Assembly (NCBI GenBank): GCA_903921965.1
Contig: CAIXSE010000353.1
Span: 1 to 10,100 of the forward strand
Direction of reading: 5' to 3'
DNA from: an uncultured Thermoleophilia bacterium
Lineage (GTDB): Bacteria > Actinomycetota > Thermoleophilia > UBA2241
DNA length: 10,100 nt
The position numbers and the translations under genes were made by a program. The notes beneath the pieces are model-generated. The model was not told where the DNA came from, did not search any database, and saw nothing but the letters and a program-made list of their open reading frames with translations. Below are positions 1,860-8,831 of the stretch, piece after piece. Positions within the stretch are counted from its first letter, which is position 1, and each line of letters opens with the position of its first letter.

Positions 1860-2570
1860 TCACTTGACCGTCACGGTCTCGGGGATCGAGCTAGCCTTCA
1901 TGGCCGTGGCGGGATCCGTGAAAGACGTGCGGAACCACCACGTTCCCTTGGCGGGCATCTTGTACTTGAGGGAGTAGGCGCCCTTGGCGTCGGTCTCCAC
2001 GGTCGCGACCACCTTGTACGACTTCGCCCCGGGCGCCTTGACGCTCAGCACGAGCTCTGCGGCCATCGCCGGCGCGAGCGTGCCGGAGAGCACGATGGTC
2101 TTGCCGGCCTTCACCGAGGTGGGCTTCGCGCCCAGGTACACCATCGGGTTCACGACGAAGATCGCCTCGTGCTGCGCCTCGACGTTGCCCTCGGTATCCT
2201 GCGACCAGTACTTGAGCGTGTGCTGGCCGATCGGGAGCGGCACCATCTCGGGATGCGGGTCGACGGCGGCCACGAGGACCGGCGGATCCACCGTGACGTC
2301 CCACTCCGTGTGGACGGTGTCGGTGGGCACGACGGAGCAGTCGAGGACGCTCTTGTCGATGCGGTAGTACACGTAGGAGACGCCCGAGGCGTCGGTCGCG
2401 TGGAAGCTGAAACTCACGTCGTCGCCGTCGTAGCTGGCGCGCACGTCGGACGTGGTGACCGGCGGAGTCAGGTCGCCGGCGCTCTTCGCGGCGAACGCCG
2501 TGACAGCACCTACGGCGAGCACCGCGACGGCAGCGAGCAGCGCCACCGTGAGGATCGTTGTCTTCTTCAC
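1860..2570 (-). CDS. Secreted protein with OmpL47/Ig-like beta-sandwich domains
   Basis: This 236-residue protein starts with a classic signal peptide (MKKTTILTVALLAAVAVLAV through TAFAA, cleavage near residue 28). Residues about 33-141 begin DLTPPVTTSDV and contain FHATDASGVSYVYYRID and GQHTLKYWSQDTEGNVE, the pattern of chitobiase/OmpL47-type beta-sandwich domains common on bacterial surface proteins. Residues 142-236 look like a second Ig-like domain (SVKAGKTIVLSGTLAP, then GAYSLKYKMPAKGTWWFRTSF). There is one cysteine in the mature protein, no sortase or lipobox signal and no catalytic motif, so a structural or binding role outside the membrane is the most I can say. Translation starts at GTG, with GGAGG seven bases upstream. 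It lies 75 bp downstream of the cytochrome gene on the same strand and is probably co-transcribed with it. Confidence 0.78.
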   Translation of the reverse strand: MKKTTILTVALLAAVAVLAVGAVTAFAAKSAGDLTPPVTTSDVRASYDGDDVSFSFHATDASGVSYVYYRIDKSVLDCSVVPTDTVHTEWDVTVDPPVLVAAVDPHPEMVPLPIGQHTLKYWSQDTEGNVEAQHEAIFVVNPMVYLGAKPTSVKAGKTIVLSGTLAPAMAAELVLSVKAPGAKSYKVVATVETDAKGAYSLKYKMPAKGTWWFRTSFTDPATAMKASSIPETVTVK

Positions 2571-2645: not shown

Positions 2646-3503
2646 TCAGTGACCCATCGAAGCGGACTTCGCGAGCGTCTGATCGTGGCACGAGCTGCAG
2701 GCCATCTTGGCACCGGTGTACGTGAGGTGACAGGTCCGGCAGGCCTCGACGCTCGGGTCAAGCGCGACGGGGGCCGCCGACGGCTTGGCCATCTGGAAGT
2801 AGGTGTTCAGGAGCTCGGTGGTCTTCAGGACGAGGTCGAAGCACGCCTTGCCGCAGCGGTCGCGCTGGAGCGGTCCGCCGTTCTTCGCGCCGGTGGTCAT
2901 GGTCCACTGCACAAGGGAGGAGTGACACAGCGGCGAGTGGGCGGTGGAGGAGGGGACGTTCTGGAGGGGCACGGTGGCCGGCGCCCACGGCGTCGTCAGG
3001 CCGAGCTCGTCCTTGTACGACTTCCAGGCCTGGTTCGTGGGCAGCGCGGTGTTGGCGTAGTACTGCATGATCGCGTCGATGAGGTTGTTGCGGTGGGTGC
3101 TGTCGGCGACGCACATGCCGATGAGGGCGGCGGACCCGTTCACCGTGCCGCACACGGTGCCCCACCCGCCGACACCGCCTCCGCCGAAGCGGAAGACGTT
3201 CTTCGGCATGGTGCCCCACGAGTCGGCGTACTTGGCGCCGAGGAACTCGATGACCGGCCACCACGAGGCCTCGGCGCAACCGGAGGCGAAGTAGACCTCG
3301 AAGGCGCGGCGCGCCATGGCCTCGGGCACGGGCTGGTCGGCCGCGGCGCCCGGGTACGGCCACGGGACGGTGACCGCCGCCGCCGCTTCAGCCGGCGACG
3401 CGATCTTCGAGAGTCCCATGCTCGCCACCGCGGCGGCGCCGGCGACCGTCCCGGCGCTGGCGAGGAACTTGCGCCGTGACATCCCCTTGTCTGTGTCGGA
3501 CAT
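2646..3503 (-). CDS. Tat-exported C_GCAxxG/split-Soret-type diheme cytochrome c
   Basis: The 285-residue product opens with a twin-arginine signal (SRRKFLASAG at 9-18, hydrophobic stretch to about 35, cleavage near PAEAAAA). The core carries the C_GCAxxG_C_C family signature: SGCAEASWWPVIEFLG (74-89), the glycine-rich FGGGGVGGWGTVCGT (106-120), and later cysteines at 131, 193, 217 and 221. The C-terminus holds two heme c attachment sites, CRTCH (255-259) and CSSCH (269-273). This arrangement matches split-Soret cytochromes, periplasmic or extracytoplasmic electron carriers of anaerobes. Start 3503 is supported by AAGGAG six bases upstream; the internal ATG at 3482 would leave a shorter Tat signal. 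It heads a likely two-gene transcript with the secreted Ig-like protein. The combination of Tat export, c-type hemes and many extra cysteines suggests an additional metal site, which is inference. Confidence 0.82.
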   Translation of the reverse strand: MSDTDKGMSRRKFLASAGTVAGAAAVASMGLSKIASPAEAAAAVTVPWPYPGAAADQPVPEAMARRAFEVYFASGCAEASWWPVIEFLGAKYADSWGTMPKNVFRFGGGGVGGWGTVCGTVNGSAALIGMCVADSTHRNNLIDAIMQYYANTALPTNQAWKSYKDELGLTTPWAPATVPLQNVPSSTAHSPLCHSSLVQWTMTTGAKNGGPLQRDRCGKACFDLVLKTTELLNTYFQMAKPSAAPVALDPSVEACRTCHLTYTGAKMACSSCHDQTLAKSASMGH

Positions 3504-4187: not shown

Positions 4188-4556
4188 TCAGCGCGTCTCG
4201 GCCTCCTGCACGACCTCGCGCTTGATCACGCCGACGAGCCGCTGCAGTGCGTCGAAGACGTGCTCGCGGATGTCCCCGGCGACGAGCACCTTCATGATGT
4301 CGTCGCCGACGGCGAGGGAGCCCTCGTTGACCCAGGCGCGCACGGCGACGATGCCCGGCCAGGTGGCGGCCTCCGCCAGGACCGCCGCCAGCCGCTCCCG
4401 GTCCACGCTCAGCTCCATGCCGGTGACGGGCTCGCCGGAGCGCGAGGATCCGCGCACGATGCCCTGGTGCGAGAGCAGCATGCCGATGCCGGCCGCCTCG
4501 GGCCGCGCCTTCACCTCGGCGATCCAGACGGTCAGGTCTGGGCTCTCGGTGCTCAT
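4188..4556 (-). CDS. Divergent MoaE-like (molybdopterin synthase large subunit-type) protein
   Basis: The 122-residue protein shows the MoaE fold: GIGMLLSHQGIVRGSSRSGEPVTGMELS (23-50) corresponds to the family's opening 'G..v.F.G.VR..n.g..V..l..e' segment, and VNEGSLAVGDDIMKVLVAGDIREHVFDALQRLVGVIKREV (76-115) to the 'G.l.vGe..v.v.v...hR..af.a....id.lK' part. In true MoaE the end reads K..vPiWK, with two lysines important for transferring sulfur to precursor Z. Here K112 is present, but the second lysine and the PxWK element are replaced (REVVQEAETR). It may therefore be a MoaE-derived protein with altered activity. Start 4556 has AAGGAA upstream; the frame continues 47 codons further without family similarity. 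No MoaD-like partner is in the window. Confidence 0.75.
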   Translation of the reverse strand: MSTESPDLTVWIAEVKARPEAAGIGMLLSHQGIVRGSSRSGEPVTGMELSVDRERLAAVLAEAATWPGIVAVRAWVNEGSLAVGDDIMKVLVAGDIREHVFDALQRLVGVIKREVVQEAETR

Positions 4557-4602
4557 CGGCTTCCTTTCGGCGGTCCCGGGTGCTGCCTGCGGGGTACCGG
4601 AC

Positions 4603-4613
4603 AACGCTATCAC
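4603..4613 (-). promoter_or_regulatory. Candidate extended -10 promoter of the MoaE-like gene
   Basis: Read on the minus strand, TGATAGCGT fits TG-N-TANNNT, about 50 bases before the start at 4556. The 11-base string GTGATAGCGTT matches the one upstream of the cytochrome gene at 10 of 11 positions. No good -35 is visible, and that region overlaps the divergent ECF-type promoter. Confidence 0.35.
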
Positions 4614-4620
4614 CCGCACC

Positions 4621-4651
4621 TGTAACGTCCGGTCTGCTGCCGCGTAGAAGG
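4621..4651 (+). promoter_or_regulatory. ECF-type promoter of the DUF2202 gene
   Basis: TGTAAC (4621-4626) is followed after exactly 15 bases by GCGTAGAAGG (4642-4651). The same two blocks with the same spacing precede the repeat-protein gene at 6751-6781, while the spacers differ in sequence. An AAC-containing -35 and a CGT-containing -10 are typical of ECF sigma promoters. The start codon is 34 bases past the downstream block. Confidence 0.72.
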
Positions 4652-4668
4652 TGGTGTACGCCACCACC
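4650..4668 (+). other. Hairpin at the start of the DUF2202 leader RNA
   Basis: GGTGGTG (4650-4656) and CACCACC (4662-4668) are exact complements around a five-base loop. The hairpin lies right at or after the expected transcription start and before AAGGAG (4672-4677). A 5' stability hairpin is a plausible role. Confidence 0.4.
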
Positions 4669-4684
4669 CACAAGGAGCGCAGCC

Positions 4685-5299
4685 ATGAAGAGAGCACTGA
4701 CGATCCTCACCGGCGGACTGGTCCTCGCTGCCGCGGTCCTCGCGGCGGCCGCCGTCGTGCAGCTGGGCGCGGGTCCGGCCGCCGCGGCCGGCCCGTCCGG
4801 CGGCAACGGCCCCGGCCCGTCCCAGACAGGCACCTGCGTGGCCTCCGACCCCTCCGTGCCGCTCAGCGCCACCGACGCGGCCGGCCTCCAGTTCATGAGC
4901 CAGGAGGAGAAGCTGGCGCACGACGTCTACGTCGCCTTCTCCAGGCAGTACAGCGTGCGGGCCTTCGCCAACATCGCCCGCTCCGAGAGCCGCCACATGG
5001 CCGCGGTCGAGCGGCTCATGGGCATCTACTCGGTGCCCGACCCGGTCGCCGGTGCGTCCGAGGGGAGCTTCAGCGACCCCGTCTTGGCGCAGCTGTACGC
5101 GTCGCTCACCGCCCAGGGAGCCCAGTCGCTGAGCGGGGCGCTGCAGGCCGGTGTGACCATCGAGCAGCGCGACATCGACGACCTCGAGGCGCGCATCGCC
5201 GCGACCGACCGCGCCGACCTCAAGGCCGTGTACGGCAACCTCCTGCGCGCCAGCAACAACCACCTGCGCGCCTTCCAGCGGCTGCTCGGCACCCTCTGA
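4685..5299 (+). CDS. Secreted DUF2202 ferritin-like protein
   Basis: This 204-residue protein has a signal peptide (KRALTILTGG then a hydrophobic run to about 27, Ala-rich cleavage region to 36), a Gly/Pro linker, and a DUF2202 domain from about 62 to 204. The domain is predicted to be a four-helix ferritin-like bundle. Visible likely iron ligands are the glutamates in SQEEKLAHDVY (72-82), SESRHMAAVE (100-109), and TIEQRDIDDLE (158-168), plus the last helix with NNHLRAFQRL (191-200). This ExxH-type pattern implies a di-iron or similar metal centre outside the cytoplasmic membrane. The biochemical role of DUF2202 is not established; iron storage, peroxide reduction or metal handling are possibilities. 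AAGGAG sits about seven bases before the ATG. It has its own ECF-type promoter and a strong terminator, so it is transcribed alone. Confidence 0.85.
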   Translation: MKRALTILTGGLVLAAAVLAAAAVVQLGAGPAAAAGPSGGNGPGPSQTGTCVASDPSVPLSATDAAGLQFMSQEEKLAHDVYVAFSRQYSVRAFANIARSESRHMAAVERLMGIYSVPDPVAGASEGSFSDPVLAQLYASLTAQGAQSLSGALQAGVTIEQRDIDDLEARIAATDRADLKAVYGNLLRASNNHLRAFQRLLGTL

Positions 5300-5365
5300 G
5301 CCGCAGCCCGGGCGGCCACTGACCCCACCCGGGCCACACTCCGGGCCTTCCTCCGGCCGCCCGCA

Positions 5366-5407
5366 GGGCCGGCGCCGGCAGCCGCCTTCGGCTCCCGGCG
5401 CCGGCCC
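5366..5407 (+). terminator. Strong terminator after the DUF2202 gene
   Basis: GGGCCGGCGCCGG (5366-5378) pairs perfectly with CCGGCGCCGGCCC (5395-5407). Inside, AGCCG/CGGCT closes a CCTT loop after a single mismatch. TTCACAAGTT follows. It lies 66 bases after the stop codon. Confidence 0.8.
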
Positions 5408-5417
5408 TTCACAAGTT

Positions 5418-5461
5418 CCGCACAATCCGTTCAAGAGCGCCGCACAACCGCCCTCTAGACT
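5418..5461 (+). promoter_or_regulatory. Candidate promoter region of the polyferredoxin gene with CCGNNCAA repeats
   Basis: CCGCACAA occurs at 5418-5425 and again at 5440-5447, a 22-base interval (about two helix turns), with a related CCGTTCAA at 5427-5434. A TAGACT (5456-5461) resembles a -10 element about 60 bases before the start codon. No clear -35 is seen, which would fit an activator-dependent promoter, but this is speculative. The TGTAAC motif of the two flanking genes is absent. Confidence 0.35.
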
Positions 5462-5519
5462 CGGAGACAGACGGCTGAGGGCGGCGCACGGGCGCGCCCT
5501 GGACACGGAGGGGCGGCGC

Positions 5520-6689
5520 ATGGCACCGGAGAGGACGGACGAGGGGGGCAGGAAGCGGGCCCGCCGGCTGCGGTGGACGATTCTCGGGATCGTGCTGGCG
5601 GGCATGACCGTACTCGTCACGGCGCACCAGACGGGCCGCGGCTCTGGACGCTGGACCGGGGTCGACTTCCTCTGCCCGTTCGGCGGGCTCGAGACCCTCT
5701 ACTCACTGCTCACCGGCGACGGCTTCCTCAAGCACACCGCGGCGAGCTCGGTCATCCTGCTCGCCGGCATGCTCCTCATGGCGCTGATCTGGCGCCGCTC
5801 GTTCTGCGGGAACCTGTGCCCGCTCGGCACGCTGCAGGGGATCTTCGGCGCCGCCGGCCGCAGGCTCCTGCGGCGGCGCCTCGTCGTCCCGCGCGGCGTC
5901 GACCGCGTGGCCCGCTACCTGAAATACGCGGTGCTCGCCTGGTTCGCGCTGTGGACGTGGCAGGCGGCCGAGCTCGTCCTGCGTTCGTACGACCCCTGGG
6001 TCGCCTGGGCGCACCTCACCTCGGGGGACCTCCTCGGCACGTACCTGATCGGCCTCATCGTGCTCGTCGTCTCGCTCGCCGGCTCGCTCGCCTACGACAG
6101 GTTCTTCTGCAAGTACCTGTGCCCCGCCGGGGCGCTGCTCGCCCTGCTCTCGCGCTTCAGCGTGCTCGGCATCCGCAGGGACCCCGGCGCCTGCATCGAC
6201 TGCGGCCGCTGCGACAAGGCCTGCATGATGAACATCGATGTCGCGACCGCCGACGTCGTCACCAGCGCCGAGTGCATCTCGTGCAACGAGTGCGTCAACG
6301 CGTGCCCCGTCAAGGGCGCCCTCCAGGTGGAGACCCCGGGCGGCCGCAGGGCGACCGCGCTCGCGGCGACCGGCGTGATCGTCGCCGTCATGATCGCGGT
6401 GGTCGGCGTGACGACACTCGCCGGGAGCTTCGACTGGCGTCAGCCGGGGCTCGCCGAGGCCATGGCGCAGACCGGCGCCGCGCCCGGTGGGACGTTCGAC
6501 CCGATGCTGATCAAGGGCTACATGTCGCTACAGGAGATCGGCGAAGCGACCGGCGTGCCGGGCGACGAACTCAGCGCCGTCTTCGGCGTCCCGGCGGAAG
6601 AGCTCGGAGCGCCGATGCGCGAGATCAAGGACAAGTACGGCTTCACGCCGGAGGACGTCCGGGCCTGGCTGGCGGAGCGGCTGCAGTGA
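5520..6689 (+). CDS. Membrane polyferredoxin, NapH/CcoG-like 4Fe-4S protein
   Basis: The 389-residue protein has an N-terminal membrane helix (about 19-36), a FLCPFGGLETLYS motif (50-62), a helix (77-91), FCGNLCPLGTLQG (95-107), further helices (135-155, 172-191), FFCKYLCPAGALLALL (196-210), and then two 4Fe-4S ferredoxin motifs: CIDCGRCDKAC (225-235) and CISCNECVNACP (252-263). A last helix (about 281-301) leads to a soluble tail with MSLQEIGEATGVP, VFGVPAEELGAPMREIKDKYGF and EDVRAWL. Proteins of this group carry electrons across or along the membrane to extracytoplasmic reductases or help metal-cofactor maturation. The tail resembles helical repeats found after such domains in other anaerobes. 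GGAGGGG six bases before the ATG makes the start secure. Its neighbours are two secreted proteins and a sigma factor, suggesting it supplies reducing power to them; that link is inference. Confidence 0.85.
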   Translation: MAPERTDEGGRKRARRLRWTILGIVLAGMTVLVTAHQTGRGSGRWTGVDFLCPFGGLETLYSLLTGDGFLKHTAASSVILLAGMLLMALIWRRSFCGNLCPLGTLQGIFGAAGRRLLRRRLVVPRGVDRVARYLKYAVLAWFALWTWQAAELVLRSYDPWVAWAHLTSGDLLGTYLIGLIVLVVSLAGSLAYDRFFCKYLCPAGALLALLSRFSVLGIRRDPGACIDCGRCDKACMMNIDVATADVVTSAECISCNECVNACPVKGALQVETPGGRRATALAATGVIVAVMIAVVGVTTLAGSFDWRQPGLAEAMAQTGAAPGGTFDPMLIKGYMSLQEIGEATGVPGDELSAVFGVPAEELGAPMREIKDKYGFTPEDVRAWLAERLQ

Positions 6690-6726
6690 GCCGCGCGGCC
6701 GCGACGGGAGCGAACGGAGCGAGGGT

Positions 6727-6743
6727 CCCGGGAAGTCCCCGGG
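6727..6743 (+). terminator. Weak hairpin after the polyferredoxin gene
   Basis: CCCGGG at 6727-6732 and again at 6738-6743 can pair around a five-base loop, 38 bases after the stop and just before the next promoter. It has no T-run. It may be only a partial terminator. Confidence 0.3.
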
Positions 6744-6750
6744 GTCGTGG

Positions 6751-6781
6751 TGTAACACCTGGTGGTCCGGTGCGTAGAAGG
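6751..6781 (+). promoter_or_regulatory. ECF-type promoter of the cysteine-repeat protein gene
   Basis: TGTAAC (6751-6756), 15 bases, then GCGTAGAAGG (6772-6781), identical in both blocks and spacing to 4621-4651. The similarity continues as GGGGTG versus TGGTG after the block. The start codon is 40 bases past the downstream block. The nearest candidate sigma factor is the ECF protein encoded at 7242-8831. Confidence 0.72.
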
Positions 6782-6820
6782 GGGTGCAAGCGGGTCAACG
6801 ACACCTCAAGGAGGACCCCG

Positions 6821-7129
6821 ATGAAGTTCTTCAAGACACTGCTGGCCGCCGGAGCCGTCTCCCTCATGGTCGCGGGGGCCGCCTTCGCCGGCACCGCTAC
6901 CCTCGACCGCGACCGTCAGCAGCTCAAGGACGGTAGCTGCACCACGGTGGCGGCGAAGGGCGCGCAGAACGGCGACCGCCTGCAGGACCAGGACCGTCAG
7001 CAGCTCAAGGACGGTAGCTGCACCACGGTGGCCTACCGGAACGGCGCTCGCAGCCACTCGCAGACGGGCAGCGGGAGCGGCACGCAGGATCGCCAGCGCC
7101 TGCACGATGGGACCTGTGTGGCGGCCTGA
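6821..7129 (+). CDS. Small secreted protein with three cysteine-containing repeats
   Basis: The 102-residue protein has a clear signal peptide (MKFFKTLLAAGAVSLMVAGA, cleavage after AFA near residue 23). The mature part is built of a repeated unit: DRQQLKDGSCTTVA at 31-44, the same 14 residues at 58-71, and a degenerate DRQRLHDGTCVA at 90-101, joined by polar Gly/Ser/Asn/Gln linkers. Each unit carries a single cysteine (40, 67, 99) and charged residues, so disulfide cross-linking or metal or thiol chemistry is possible. There is no CxxCH or other known motif, and I do not recognise the family. CAAGGAGG lies about nine bases before the ATG. The first two repeats are identical for 41 bases at the DNA level. 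An ECF-type promoter precedes it and a very strong hairpin follows it. Confidence 0.78.
   Translation: MKFFKTLLAAGAVSLMVAGAAFAGTATLDRDRQQLKDGSCTTVAAKGAQNGDRLQDQDRQQLKDGSCTTVAYRNGARSHSQTGSGSGTQDRQRLHDGTCVAA
6911..7032 (+). repeat. 41-bp exact direct repeat inside the cysteine-repeat gene
   Basis: Bases 6911-6951 recur without change at 6992-7032. The 81-base offset is 27 codons, so the reading frame is kept. Such identity implies a recent duplication or repeat homogenisation, and copy number could vary between strains. Confidence 0.9.
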
Positions 7130-7143
7130 CGAGGATCGGGACT

Positions 7144-7183
7144 CGCATGCGGACGGCGGGCGTGCGCCCGTCGTCCGCATGCG
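7144..7183 (+). terminator. Long hairpin terminator, 40-base near-perfect palindrome
   Basis: CGCATGCGGACG (7144-7155) pairs with CGTCCGCATGCG (7172-7183). A G-T pair follows, then CGGGCG (7157-7162) pairs with CGCCCG (7165-7170), giving about 19 paired positions around a two-base centre. It begins 14 bases after the repeat-protein stop and ends 58 bases before the sigma-factor start. There is no T-run. Confidence 0.65.
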
Positions 7184-7241
7184 TGCAGGATACGGAGGCA
7201 GCCGGCGACACGGGCGCCTCGAAGGACGAAGGGCAGGTCAG

Positions 7242-8831
7242 GTGGATCGCAGTGCGCGGGCTGACGAAGGCAAGGACGCGGAGAGGCGAGACGTCGCCGC
7301 CTCCGGGCGCGCCCGGACGGGCGGCACGGACGGCGCGGAGTGGTTCGAGCAGCTGTGGGCGGACGCCCACGCGCGCATCTACAACCTCGCCGCCCGTATC
7401 GTCGGCGACCGCGACGCCGCCGCCGACATCACCCAGGAGGTCTTCCTCCGGGCGTTCACACACGCCGACGACGTGCGCAGGACAGACGACCCCGTCCCCT
7501 GGCTCTACCGCGTGGCCGTCAACGTCTGCTACGACCACCTCAGGCGACGGAAGGTGAGGCCGACAGCCCCACTGGAGGCGGCCGGAGAGGTCGCGTCCTT
7601 CCACGACGGTTTCGCCGCGGCCGAGACGACGCGCGCCGTCGAGACCGCGCTCGGCACGCTGACCCCGCGCTACCGCACGGCCCTGGTCCTCAAGGACCTG
7701 CACGGGCTCGACACCGGGGAGATCGCGAGCGCGATGGACGTGACGCAGCCGACGGCGCGGGTCCTGCTGCACCGCTCGCGGGCCGCCTTCAAGAAGGCGT
7801 TCCGCCAGGTCGCCCCGGCCGGCGGCGTCCCGGTGGCCGGACTCGCCGTGCTGACCGCGCTCCCCGTGCCGCCCGGGCTGCAGGTTCCGGTGCCTCTCGT
7901 CCCCGTGCCCTCGCCCCCCGGGCCGGGGACTCCGGGTCCGGACCTGTCGGGCCTCGGGGCGCCCACGACGGGAGCCTCCGCCGCGCCACTCGCGCCGGCG
8001 GCGCTCTCGCCGGCGGCGGCCGTCCCGGCGGCGGCACCTCTCCTCGCGCCCGCCGCCGGCGTACTGGCAAAGGTGGGCAGCGTCATCGGCCTCAAGGCGG
8101 CGGCCGTGGCGAGCGCGGCGGTCATCGCAGCGGGCGGGGTGGCGGTGGTCGCGACCGAGCCGTCACCTCACACGACCGCCTCGCCGGGCAACGGAGCGGC
8201 GACGGCCGGCCCCCACAGCGGGAGCGCGGCGGGCGGAAGCTTCAGCTCGCCCGGCCCTGGGCTCGGCGCCGGCGCAGGGAGCCGGGGAGGTGTCGCCTCG
8301 GGCGCGGACGGCACTGGGCCGCGCACGACCGGCGCGGGCGGCGGTCCGCAAAGCGGCGTGAGAGCAGGCGGCGGAGCCACTGCCGCCAACGGCCCAGGCG
8401 GAGCAGGCGCGGACCCGGGTCCGGCCGCACGCCCCGGCGGCGGAAGCGGGGGCGGGGATGCGGCCCCCGGCGCGAACGGTACCGGCGCATCCGGAGCCGG
8501 CGGTCAGGGCGGTGCCGGGGCCGGGAGCCAGGGTGAGCCGGCAGGCCAGGGCGGCGACGGGCAGGCGGCGGGTCCGCAGGACGGATCGGGAACGAAGGCG
8601 CCCGGCGGTACAGGCGGCGACACCGGCGGCGCGCAAGGCTCGGGTGAGCCGGCCGGCCCTGGTGCGCCTGACACGGGCGAGCCGGCCGGCGGACAACAGG
8701 ACGACCCCGGATCGACCGCCGGTCCTCAGGACGGCGGATCGGGTCCCGGCGCTCCGGACGAGCCCGCCGGCCCCGAGCAGCCGGCCGGCGACACCGGCTG
8801 GACCGGGGACTCGGAGAGCACAGGGTACTGA
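7242..8831 (+). CDS. ECF-type sigma factor fused to a transmembrane helix and a long low-complexity tail
   Basis: The GTG start, with AAGGG about eight bases upstream, gives 529 residues. Region sigma-2 spans about 34-104 (EWFEQLWADAHARIYNLAAR, DAAADITQEVFLRAFTH, PWLYRVAVNVCYDHLRRRK). Region sigma-4 spans about 131-189 (TPRYRTALVLKDLHGLDTGE, then MDVTQPTARVLLHRSRAAFKKAF with the helix-turn-helix). After it come a Pro/Ala-rich linker of about 90 residues, one hydrophobic helix (about 281-304, VIGLKAAAVASAAVIAAGGV) and about 225 residues rich in Gly, Ala, Pro, Gln and Asp with GEPAG and PGAPD repeats, ending STGY. This predicts a sigma factor anchored in the membrane with its tail outside, a self-contained sensor in place of a separate anti-sigma factor. 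No zinc-finger anti-sigma domain is visible. Earlier in-frame starts, from 7107 on, would run through the long hairpin and overlap the previous gene. Its likely targets are the two ECF-type promoters upstream. Confidence 0.82.
   Translation: MDRSARADEGKDAERRDVAASGRARTGGTDGAEWFEQLWADAHARIYNLAARIVGDRDAAADITQEVFLRAFTHADDVRRTDDPVPWLYRVAVNVCYDHLRRRKVRPTAPLEAAGEVASFHDGFAAAETTRAVETALGTLTPRYRTALVLKDLHGLDTGEIASAMDVTQPTARVLLHRSRAAFKKAFRQVAPAGGVPVAGLAVLTALPVPPGLQVPVPLVPVPSPPGPGTPGPDLSGLGAPTTGASAAPLAPAALSPAAAVPAAAPLLAPAAGVLAKVGSVIGLKAAAVASAAVIAAGGVAVVATEPSPHTTASPGNGAATAGPHSGSAAGGSFSSPGPGLGAGAGSRGGVASGADGTGPRTTGAGGGPQSGVRAGGGATAANGPGGAGADPGPAARPGGGSGGGDAAPGANGTGASGAGGQGGAGAGSQGEPAGQGGDGQAAGPQDGSGTKAPGGTGGDTGGAQGSGEPAGPGAPDTGEPAGGQQDDPGSTAGPQDGGSGPGAPDEPAGPEQPAGDTGWTGDSESTGY

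What the first reader, a model, noticed from the sequence alone, without database searches (positions are those of the whole stretch)
4621..6781. Two secreted-protein genes share an identical bipartite promoter with ECF hallmarks
TGTAAC, exactly 15 bases, then GCGTAGAAGG occurs at 4621-4651 before the DUF2202 gene and at 6751-6781 before the cysteine-repeat gene. The spacers differ in sequence, while both blocks and their spacing are kept, as expected for a sigma-factor site. The start codons follow at similar distances (34 and 40 bases). I did not find the motif before the other genes in the window. An ECF sigma gene lies just downstream, so a local regulon is likely.
Basis: partly seen in the sequence, partly recalled or inferred. 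Interest (0 to 1): 0.72.

Follow-up and report, generated by a model that had tools for sequence, protein, structure and literature searches.

The report
Shared promoters beside a membrane-tethered sigma factor
Two genes for secreted proteins carry the same on-switch, of the type read by a class of stress-response sigma factors; the best candidate reader is the unusual, probably membrane-tethered one encoded next door, because distant relatives carry a variant of this switch at genes for the same kind of sigma factor.

Summary
Read as -35/-10 it is TGTAAC-N16-CGTA, the AAC/CGT hallmark of ECF promoters. As a bare repeat it is not rare enough (33 of 250 shuffles hold as good a pair); with both copies required upstream of starts, 1 of 250 does. 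The decisive evidence is comparative. In 69 genomes of the nearest order held, a profile of extended ECF sigma factors found 16 strong members. All 16 have one [TC]GTAAG-N16/17-CG[AT] site upstream: 9 before the ECF gene, 7 before a small gene ahead of it. The 6 members not used to set the pattern all have it; 0 of 4 weaker relatives do. Four relatives repeat the window's order: site, DGSC-containing gene, ECF gene. I conclude these are ECF promoters, most likely read by the adjacent sigma factor, which would then drive its own operon. Against: relatives' boxes differ (AAG, CGWC), the window's sigma factor is a separate clade without their zinc finger, genome-wide counts do not exceed the reversed-pattern control, and DUF2202 loci of relatives lack the site (0 of 5). 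Transcription starts and sigma dependence are untested.

The parts
4621..4651 (+). ECF-type promoter P1: -35 TGTAAC (4621-4626), 16 bases, -10 CGTAGA (4643-4648), then AGG; 34 bases before the DUF2202 start
   Evidence: AAC/CGT hallmark from passages of PMC8103513 and PMC3426412
4685..5299 (+). DUF2202 protein, 204 aa, signal-peptide-like start, ferritin-like helix bundle predicted
   Evidence: PF09968 E 2.8e-35; MJ0754 E 4.9e-35; model and Foldseek
5365..5408 (+). Hairpin after the DUF2202 gene (20-bp arms, 95% complementary), no T-run found; may end that transcript
5520..6689 (+). NapH-like membrane ferredoxin, no such site before it
6751..6781 (+). ECF-type promoter P2: -35 TGTAAC (6751-6756), 16 bases, -10 CGTAGA (6773-6778), then AGG; 40 bases before the Cys-repeat start
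   Evidence: counterpart sites in relatives
6821..7129 (+). Cys-repeat protein, 102 aa, signal-peptide-like start, three repeats ending DG(S/T)C
   Evidence: 10 homologs, alignment A5
7144..7183 (+). Hairpin between the repeat gene and the sigma gene (19-bp arms, 95% complementary); possible attenuator or stabiliser
7242..8831 (+). ECF sigma factor with C-terminal extension, 529 aa from GTG (start tentative)
   Evidence: Sigma70 r2 and r4; 107 homologs; A1 and A3
7839..7880 (+). Conserved segment after sigma4 (residues 200-213, GLxxxLxxLPVPxxL in the window)
   Evidence: L201, L207, P210, L213 invariant in 75 aligned proteins; fuller motif in 65 of 75
8097..8153 (+). Predicted membrane helix of the sigma factor (residues 286-304), then a Gly/Pro-rich tail
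   Evidence: Hydropathy 2.21

Best explanation
The two sites are the -35/-10 elements (TGTAAC-N16-CGTA) of two promoters recognised by an ECF sigma factor, most likely the one encoded at 7242-8831. P2 drives the small secreted Cys-repeat gene and, by read-through past the hairpin at 7144-7183, the sigma gene behind it (positive autoregulation). P1 drives a secreted ferritin-like DUF2202 protein. The sigma factor is probably held inactive at the membrane by its own extension (conserved GLxxxLxxLPVPxxL segment, one membrane helix, outer Gly/Pro-rich tail) and freed by an envelope signal, through proteolysis or a change of shape. Shown here: the sites, their architecture, and the constant pairing of such sites with this kind of sigma gene in relatives. 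Inferred: recognition by this sigma factor, read-through, membrane tethering, release, and a metal or redox role.
For: AAC/CGT boxes are the ECF hallmark (passages) and a 16-17 bp spacer is usual (passages on SigE of Streptomyces). Both copies sit just upstream of starts (1 of 250 shuffles as good). In 69 genomes of the nearest order held, an ECF profile (A6) gave 21 matches in 18 genomes; the 16 strong ones (E 1e-93 or better, 14 genomes) each have exactly one [TC]GTAA[GC]-N16/17-CG[AT] within 620 bases upstream (528 available for one), with 0 on the other strand of the same stretches and 0 in the gene bodies. Background in the same order is 0.047 per 700 bases of one strand. The pattern was set on 10 members; the 6 others, found by protein alone, all have it. 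Of 20 matches to YGTAAGG-N15-CGWCWT in the 69 genomes, 14 lie 2-84 bases before an ECF gene of this kind (4) or a small gene with a signal-peptide-like start judged by eye (10). 14 of the 20 lie in the 14 ECF genomes, against 3 of 22 control matches. Site, DGSC-containing gene, ECF gene in that order: L158, L159, L171, L172.
Against: The bare repeat is weak (33 of 250 shuffles). Genome-wide counts do not exceed the reversed control (11 versus 10; 20 versus 22); only the positions do. The window's boxes differ from the relatives' (AAC versus AAG; CGTA versus CGWC), its sigma factor is a clade apart and lacks their zinc finger. Five DUF2202 loci of the order have no such site. No genome of the window's own lineage could be scanned and no close relative of its sigma factor turned up. 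The 16 include near-copies (G415/G424a, G444/G446, G448b/G449), so there are about 13 distinct cases, and about 4 among the 6 held out. Three of the 10 pattern-setting loci (G415, G424a, G448a) had first been reached through the motif.
Confidence: 0.8

Rival explanations
1. The sites are genuine ECF promoters but are read by another ECF sigma factor of the same cell; the neighbour has other targets.
For: ECF boxes overlap widely between sigma factors, and sampled Actinomycetota genomes often give several ECF matches (264 of 306 genomes have at least one). The window's sigma factor is not in the relatives' clade.
Against: In relatives the site goes with this kind of ECF gene: 16 of 16, against 0 of 4 weaker ECF relatives. 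P2 lies ahead of the sigma gene itself.
Confidence: 0.13
2. The shared blocks are binding sites of an activator or repressor, or a conserved 5' leader element, not a sigma site.
For: The second block is longer (10 bases) than a usual -10 box, and similarity runs on for a few bases after it. No sigma-70-like promoter was found in 4500-7400.
Against: The blocks are not inverted repeats of each other, no Rfam family matches, the two leaders fold differently and not better than shuffles beyond z -1.8, and relatives keep exactly the ECF spacing with other letters in the spacer.
Confidence: 0.05
3. The repeat is a coincidence in a G+C-rich window.
For: 33 of 250 shuffles contain a bipartite pair as good somewhere; genome-wide counts in relatives equal the reversed control.
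Against: Placement before two neighbouring starts (1 of 250), the ECF hallmark letters, and the counterpart at the same place in relatives.
Confidence: 0.02

Closest known systems
ECF48, ECF52 and ECF53 sigma factors of Actinobacteria (fused zinc-finger anti-sigma; SCO4117)
   Same: ECF sigma domain with a C-terminal fusion, membrane helix and long low-complexity outer part; autoregulation proposed for SCO4117 (passages of PMC8999054 and PMC5826349). The ECFs of the related order even keep a zinc finger (H276, C280, C283 invariant in 10)
   Different: The window's protein has no zinc finger and no carbohydrate-binding match; it has the GLxxxLxxLPVPxxL segment instead. The motif printed for SCO4117 is CSGYN-17-SRHA, unlike TGTAAC-N16-CGTA
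ECF41 sigma factors and their TGTCACA-N16-CGTC promoters
   Same: C-terminal extension that regulates activity; a partner gene upstream usually carries the promoter while the ECF gene behind it lacks one (passages of PMC3426412)
   Different: ECF41 extensions are soluble domains and partners are enzymes; here a membrane helix and small secreted proteins, and another -35 box
MJ0754 (DUF2202, PDB 3q4n, 3q4r)
   Same: DUF2202 domain, E 4.9e-35, 46% identity in the structural match
   Different: The window's protein has a signal-peptide-like start; no function is known from the calls made here

Membership tests
[quoted passage not shown]
   TGTAAC and CGTA in both copies; hallmark in PMC8103513
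ECF-type promoter | 16-17 bp between the boxes | tested here: met
   16 in both copies; in relatives 13 of 16 have 16 and 3 of 16 have 17
ECF-type promoter | Transcription starts there and depends on an ECF sigma factor | not testable with these tools
   Needs 5'-end mapping and a sigma deletion or in vitro transcription
ECF sigma factor | Only sigma2 and sigma4, linker under 50 residues | tested here: met
   Pfam r2 at 88-149 and r4 at 176-227 of the ORF from 7107, no other sigma region
ECF sigma factor with separate cognate anti-sigma gene | Anti-sigma gene beside it | tested here: not met
   None among the nine ORFs scanned; the genes after it are a methyltransferase and an OsmC protein on the other strand
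ECF48/52/53 (fused zinc-finger anti-sigma) | Zinc-finger domain after sigma4 | tested here: not met
   HxxxCxxC in 2 of 75 family members (P0085, P0088), not in the window's protein; zf-HC2 in those two at E 0.003, below cut-off
ECF48/52/53 (fused zinc-finger anti-sigma) | Membrane helix in the extension | tested here: met
   Hydropathy 2.21 at residue 286; 73 of 75 members have a segment of at least 1.6 after residue 200; hydropathy only, and not every best segment need be the helix
ECF52 | Carbohydrate-binding domain at the C-terminus | tested here: not met
   No Pfam match beyond the sigma regions
ECF family A6 of the order of G136 | Same clade of sigma domains | tested here: not met
   The 16 A6 members form their own clade (98/92); the window groups with P0001, P0006, P0004
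DUF2202 (PF09968) | Profile match above the curated cut-off | tested here: met
   122 bits, cut-off 22

The most novel reading that the evidence does not exclude
An undescribed ECF group in which the sigma factor is its own membrane sensor without a zinc finger, the GLxxxLxxLPVPxxL segment serving as built-in anti-sigma element, and whose constant output is a secreted DGSC-repeat protein that, with a secreted ferritin-like protein, handles metal or redox stress outside the membrane and may feed back on the sigma factor's outer tail.
Probability: 0.2. Interest if true: 0.7.

Novelty: new variant of a known kind. Interest (0 to 1): 0.5.

Why it matters
It gives a predicted promoter, at least two targets and a testable feedback loop for a family of probably membrane-tethered sigma factors for which I found no described member (paper searches in a library that lacks most subscription papers), and it ties a secreted repeat protein of unknown function to that kind of regulator in several lineages. 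Between the window and the relatives the boxes differ (AAC and AAG, CGTA and CGWC) while spacing and gene order stay, so sigma-promoter co-evolution could be tested in a small local system.

Tried and rejected
Reaching relatives. The window's own genome is not held. No close relative of the sigma factor appeared in 396 phylum genomes (E 1e-25), in 69 order genomes (4 at E 1e-20, distant) or in 396 class genomes (the same 4); these sets overlap. The profile A2 on 306 phylum genomes matched 264, none of the listed matches spanning the tail segment to its end (the list was cut). A search for the tail segment in the loci then held found none. The one viral contig with the exact motif (L001) carries it on the minus strand inside an ORF region of a phage-like contig; I judged it chance. 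Viral contigs gave only distant ECFs (12 loci).

Tests that failed or weakened the case. The plain look-elsewhere test (one search is an earlier version in which self-complementary pairs were counted: 23 of 60 shuffles). Genome-wide counts against the reversed control. The exact motif in the order: 0 of 69. DUF2202 promoters in relatives: 0 of 5 loci. The idea that the window's sigma factor belongs to the relatives' clade. The structure model of the sigma factor is unreliable outside sigma2 and sigma4. No Rfam family and no sigma-70 or terminator pattern was found.

Equal lengths suggest the same contigs.

Rows set aside. Of 21 A6 matches 16 were counted as strong; G440 was left out because its contig begins 137 bases before the match (it has a site after the ECF gene), and G430b, G431, G432 and G425 served as contrast. 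In the background some loci overlap each other, and L176-L178 had been fetched around motif matches, so that rate is if anything too high. The tree used a selection: 22 of the 107 homologs counting the window as one, 16 A6 members, 3 of the weak ones and 14 of the 80 genome-contig loci.

Literature. Searches (DUF2202; MJ0754) returned no paper in the held library. Of PMC8999054, PMC5826349, PMC3426412, PMC8103513 and PMC6767563 I saw passages only. The main ECF reclassification paper was not read.
Full report
What is there. The window is 72% G+C. Both copies of TGTAAC-N15-GCGTAGAAGG are exact and the only ones. Read as an ECF site the same letters are -35 TGTAAC, 16 bases, -10 CGTAGA. The genes that follow are a DUF2202 protein (4685-5299) and a 102-residue protein with three repeats ending DG(S/T)C (6821-7129), both with signal-peptide-like hydrophobic starts. 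A NapH-like membrane ferredoxin (5520-6689) lies between them. An ECF sigma gene (GTG 7242, tentative, to 8831) follows the repeat gene after 112 bases that hold a 19-bp hairpin; a 20-bp hairpin follows the DUF2202 gene.

Is it more than chance? As a bare repeat, not convincingly: the pair is the best of 33 bipartite pairs in the window, but 33 of 250 shuffles hold one as good. With both copies within 100 bases upstream of predicted starts in the same orientation, 1 of 250 does. TGTAAC-N16-CGTAGA has no match in 69 genomes of the nearest order held (reversed control 5).

The sigma factor. Pfam finds sigma regions 2 and 4 only. After sigma4 come a conserved segment (L201, L207, P210, L213 invariant in 75 aligned proteins; fuller motif in 65 of 75), a predicted membrane helix at 286-304 and a Gly/Pro-rich tail. 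Of 107 homologs, 90 have E below 4e-27 and are 312-616 residues long. Two of the 75, P0085 and P0088, have an HxxxCxxC zinc-finger motif after sigma4 (zf-HC2 below cut-off). The AlphaFold model is confident for the sigma domains only. Few homologs carry organism names: Actinobacteria bacterium (two) and Thermoleophilia bacterium (one).

Finding relatives. There a profile of the repeat protein matched 11 of 69 genomes at E 0.001, clearly in G450 (2.8e-17) and G428 (2.8e-16) and less so in G424 (3.2e-7). In G428 a DUF2202 gene lies on the opposite strand about 6 kb away, and a polyferredoxin (28% identical to the NapH-like protein over 206 residues), the repeat gene and an ECF gene follow each other; in G450 the repeat gene is followed by an ECF gene. 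Upstream of the repeat genes stand TGTAAG-N16-CGACTT (G428, G424) and TGTAAG-N16-CGACAT (G450).

Test across the order. TGTAAG-N16-CGACWT gave 11 matches in 8 of 69 genomes (control 10). Eight of the 11 lie just before an ECF gene (2) or a small gene with a signal-peptide-like start (6), among them a DGSC-repeat gene of G448 that the profile search had not listed; 3 lie inside opposite-strand ORFs. All 10 extended-ECF loci examined by then have [TC]GTAAG-N16/17-CG[AT] upstream; 3 of the 10 had been reached through the motif. A profile of those ten ECFs (A6) gave 21 matches in 18 of 69 genomes. The 16 strong ones (E 1e-93 or better, 14 genomes) each have exactly one site within 620 bases upstream, with none on the other strand of those stretches and none in the gene bodies. 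In 9 the site is directly before the ECF gene and in 7 before a small gene ahead of it. The 6 members found only all have it. Near-copies (G415/G424a, G444/G446, G448b/G449) reduce the number of distinct cases to about 13, and to about 4 among the 6. Of the five weaker matches four have no site on the sense strand and one lacks upstream sequence. Background: 18 matches in 134,012 bases, 0.047 per 700 bases of one strand.

A wider pattern, YGTAAGG-N15-CGWCWT, has 20 matches in 16 genomes: 14 in the 14 ECF genomes (control 3) and 6 in the other 55 (control 19); in total it does not exceed the control (22). By position 14 of the 20 lie 2-84 bases before an ECF gene (4) or a small gene with a signal-peptide-like start (10); for G422 and G443 no ECF gene was seen beside it. 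The other 6 are not so placed.

What this says about the window. P2 stands where the relatives' site stands, before the DGSC-repeat gene that precedes the ECF gene, with the same spacing. The letters differ: all 16 relatives have AAG where the window has the classical AAC, and 15 of 16 have CG(A/T)C where the window has CGTA. The sigma domains form separate clades, and the relatives keep a zinc finger (H276, C280, C283 invariant in ten) that the window's protein lacks. Common descent of the two systems is therefore inferred from gene order and the repeat protein, not from the tree. P1, before DUF2202, has no counterpart in 5 DUF2202 loci of the order.

Function. DUF2202 matches MJ0754 (E 4.9e-35); the model's best Foldseek hits are MJ0754 entries, one titled as with Zn2+, followed at weak E by a DUF305 fragment and bacterioferritins. 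E75, E101xxH104, E160 and H193, invariant in 44 sequences, would suit a metal site. Together with a secreted protein of single-Cys repeats, a metal or redox role outside the membrane is a guess and no more.

Mechanism, with status. Sites and architecture: shown. Constant link with extended ECF genes: shown in relatives. Reading of P1 and P2 by the neighbour: inferred, likely. Autoregulation by read-through: inferred. Membrane tethering and release: inferred from hydropathy and by analogy with ECF48/52/53 (passages of PMC8999054 and PMC5826349). ECF41 offers a parallel in logic: the upstream partner gene usually carries the promoter while the ECF gene behind it lacks one (passages of PMC3426412).

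Noticed in passing
L182, L183, L189, L191, L193: In several relatives a second site of the same type lies just after the ECF gene, before another small gene with a signal-peptide-like start, so the local regulon brackets the sigma gene.
   Followed up: partly
L183, L189, L191, L193, L194, L201: Where the site precedes the ECF gene itself, the first in-frame start codon follows the -10 box by only about 2-11 bases, which would make these transcripts nearly leaderless.
   Followed up: no
window 7839-7880: The segment after sigma4 (ECF residues 200-213) is as conserved as the sigma core in proteins without a zinc finger; it may be a built-in inhibitory element.
   Followed up: partly
window 7144-7183: Near-perfect 19-bp hairpin between the repeat gene and the sigma gene, without a detected T-run.
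   Followed up: partly
window 2646-3503 (-): Protein resembling split-Soret cytochrome c and the C_GCAxxG_C_C family (both NCBIfam matches below cut-off), beside a secreted Ig-like protein at 1860-2570 (-).
   Followed up: no
L136 and L195: In G417 and G435 the small gene ahead of the ECF gene encodes a His-containing protein without DGSC repeats (in G417 it ends HHDGTCND), so the partner of the sigma factor seems to vary.
   Followed up: no
L172 (G448) and L201: G424 and G448 each hold two ECF genes of this family, every one with its own upstream site.
   Followed up: no
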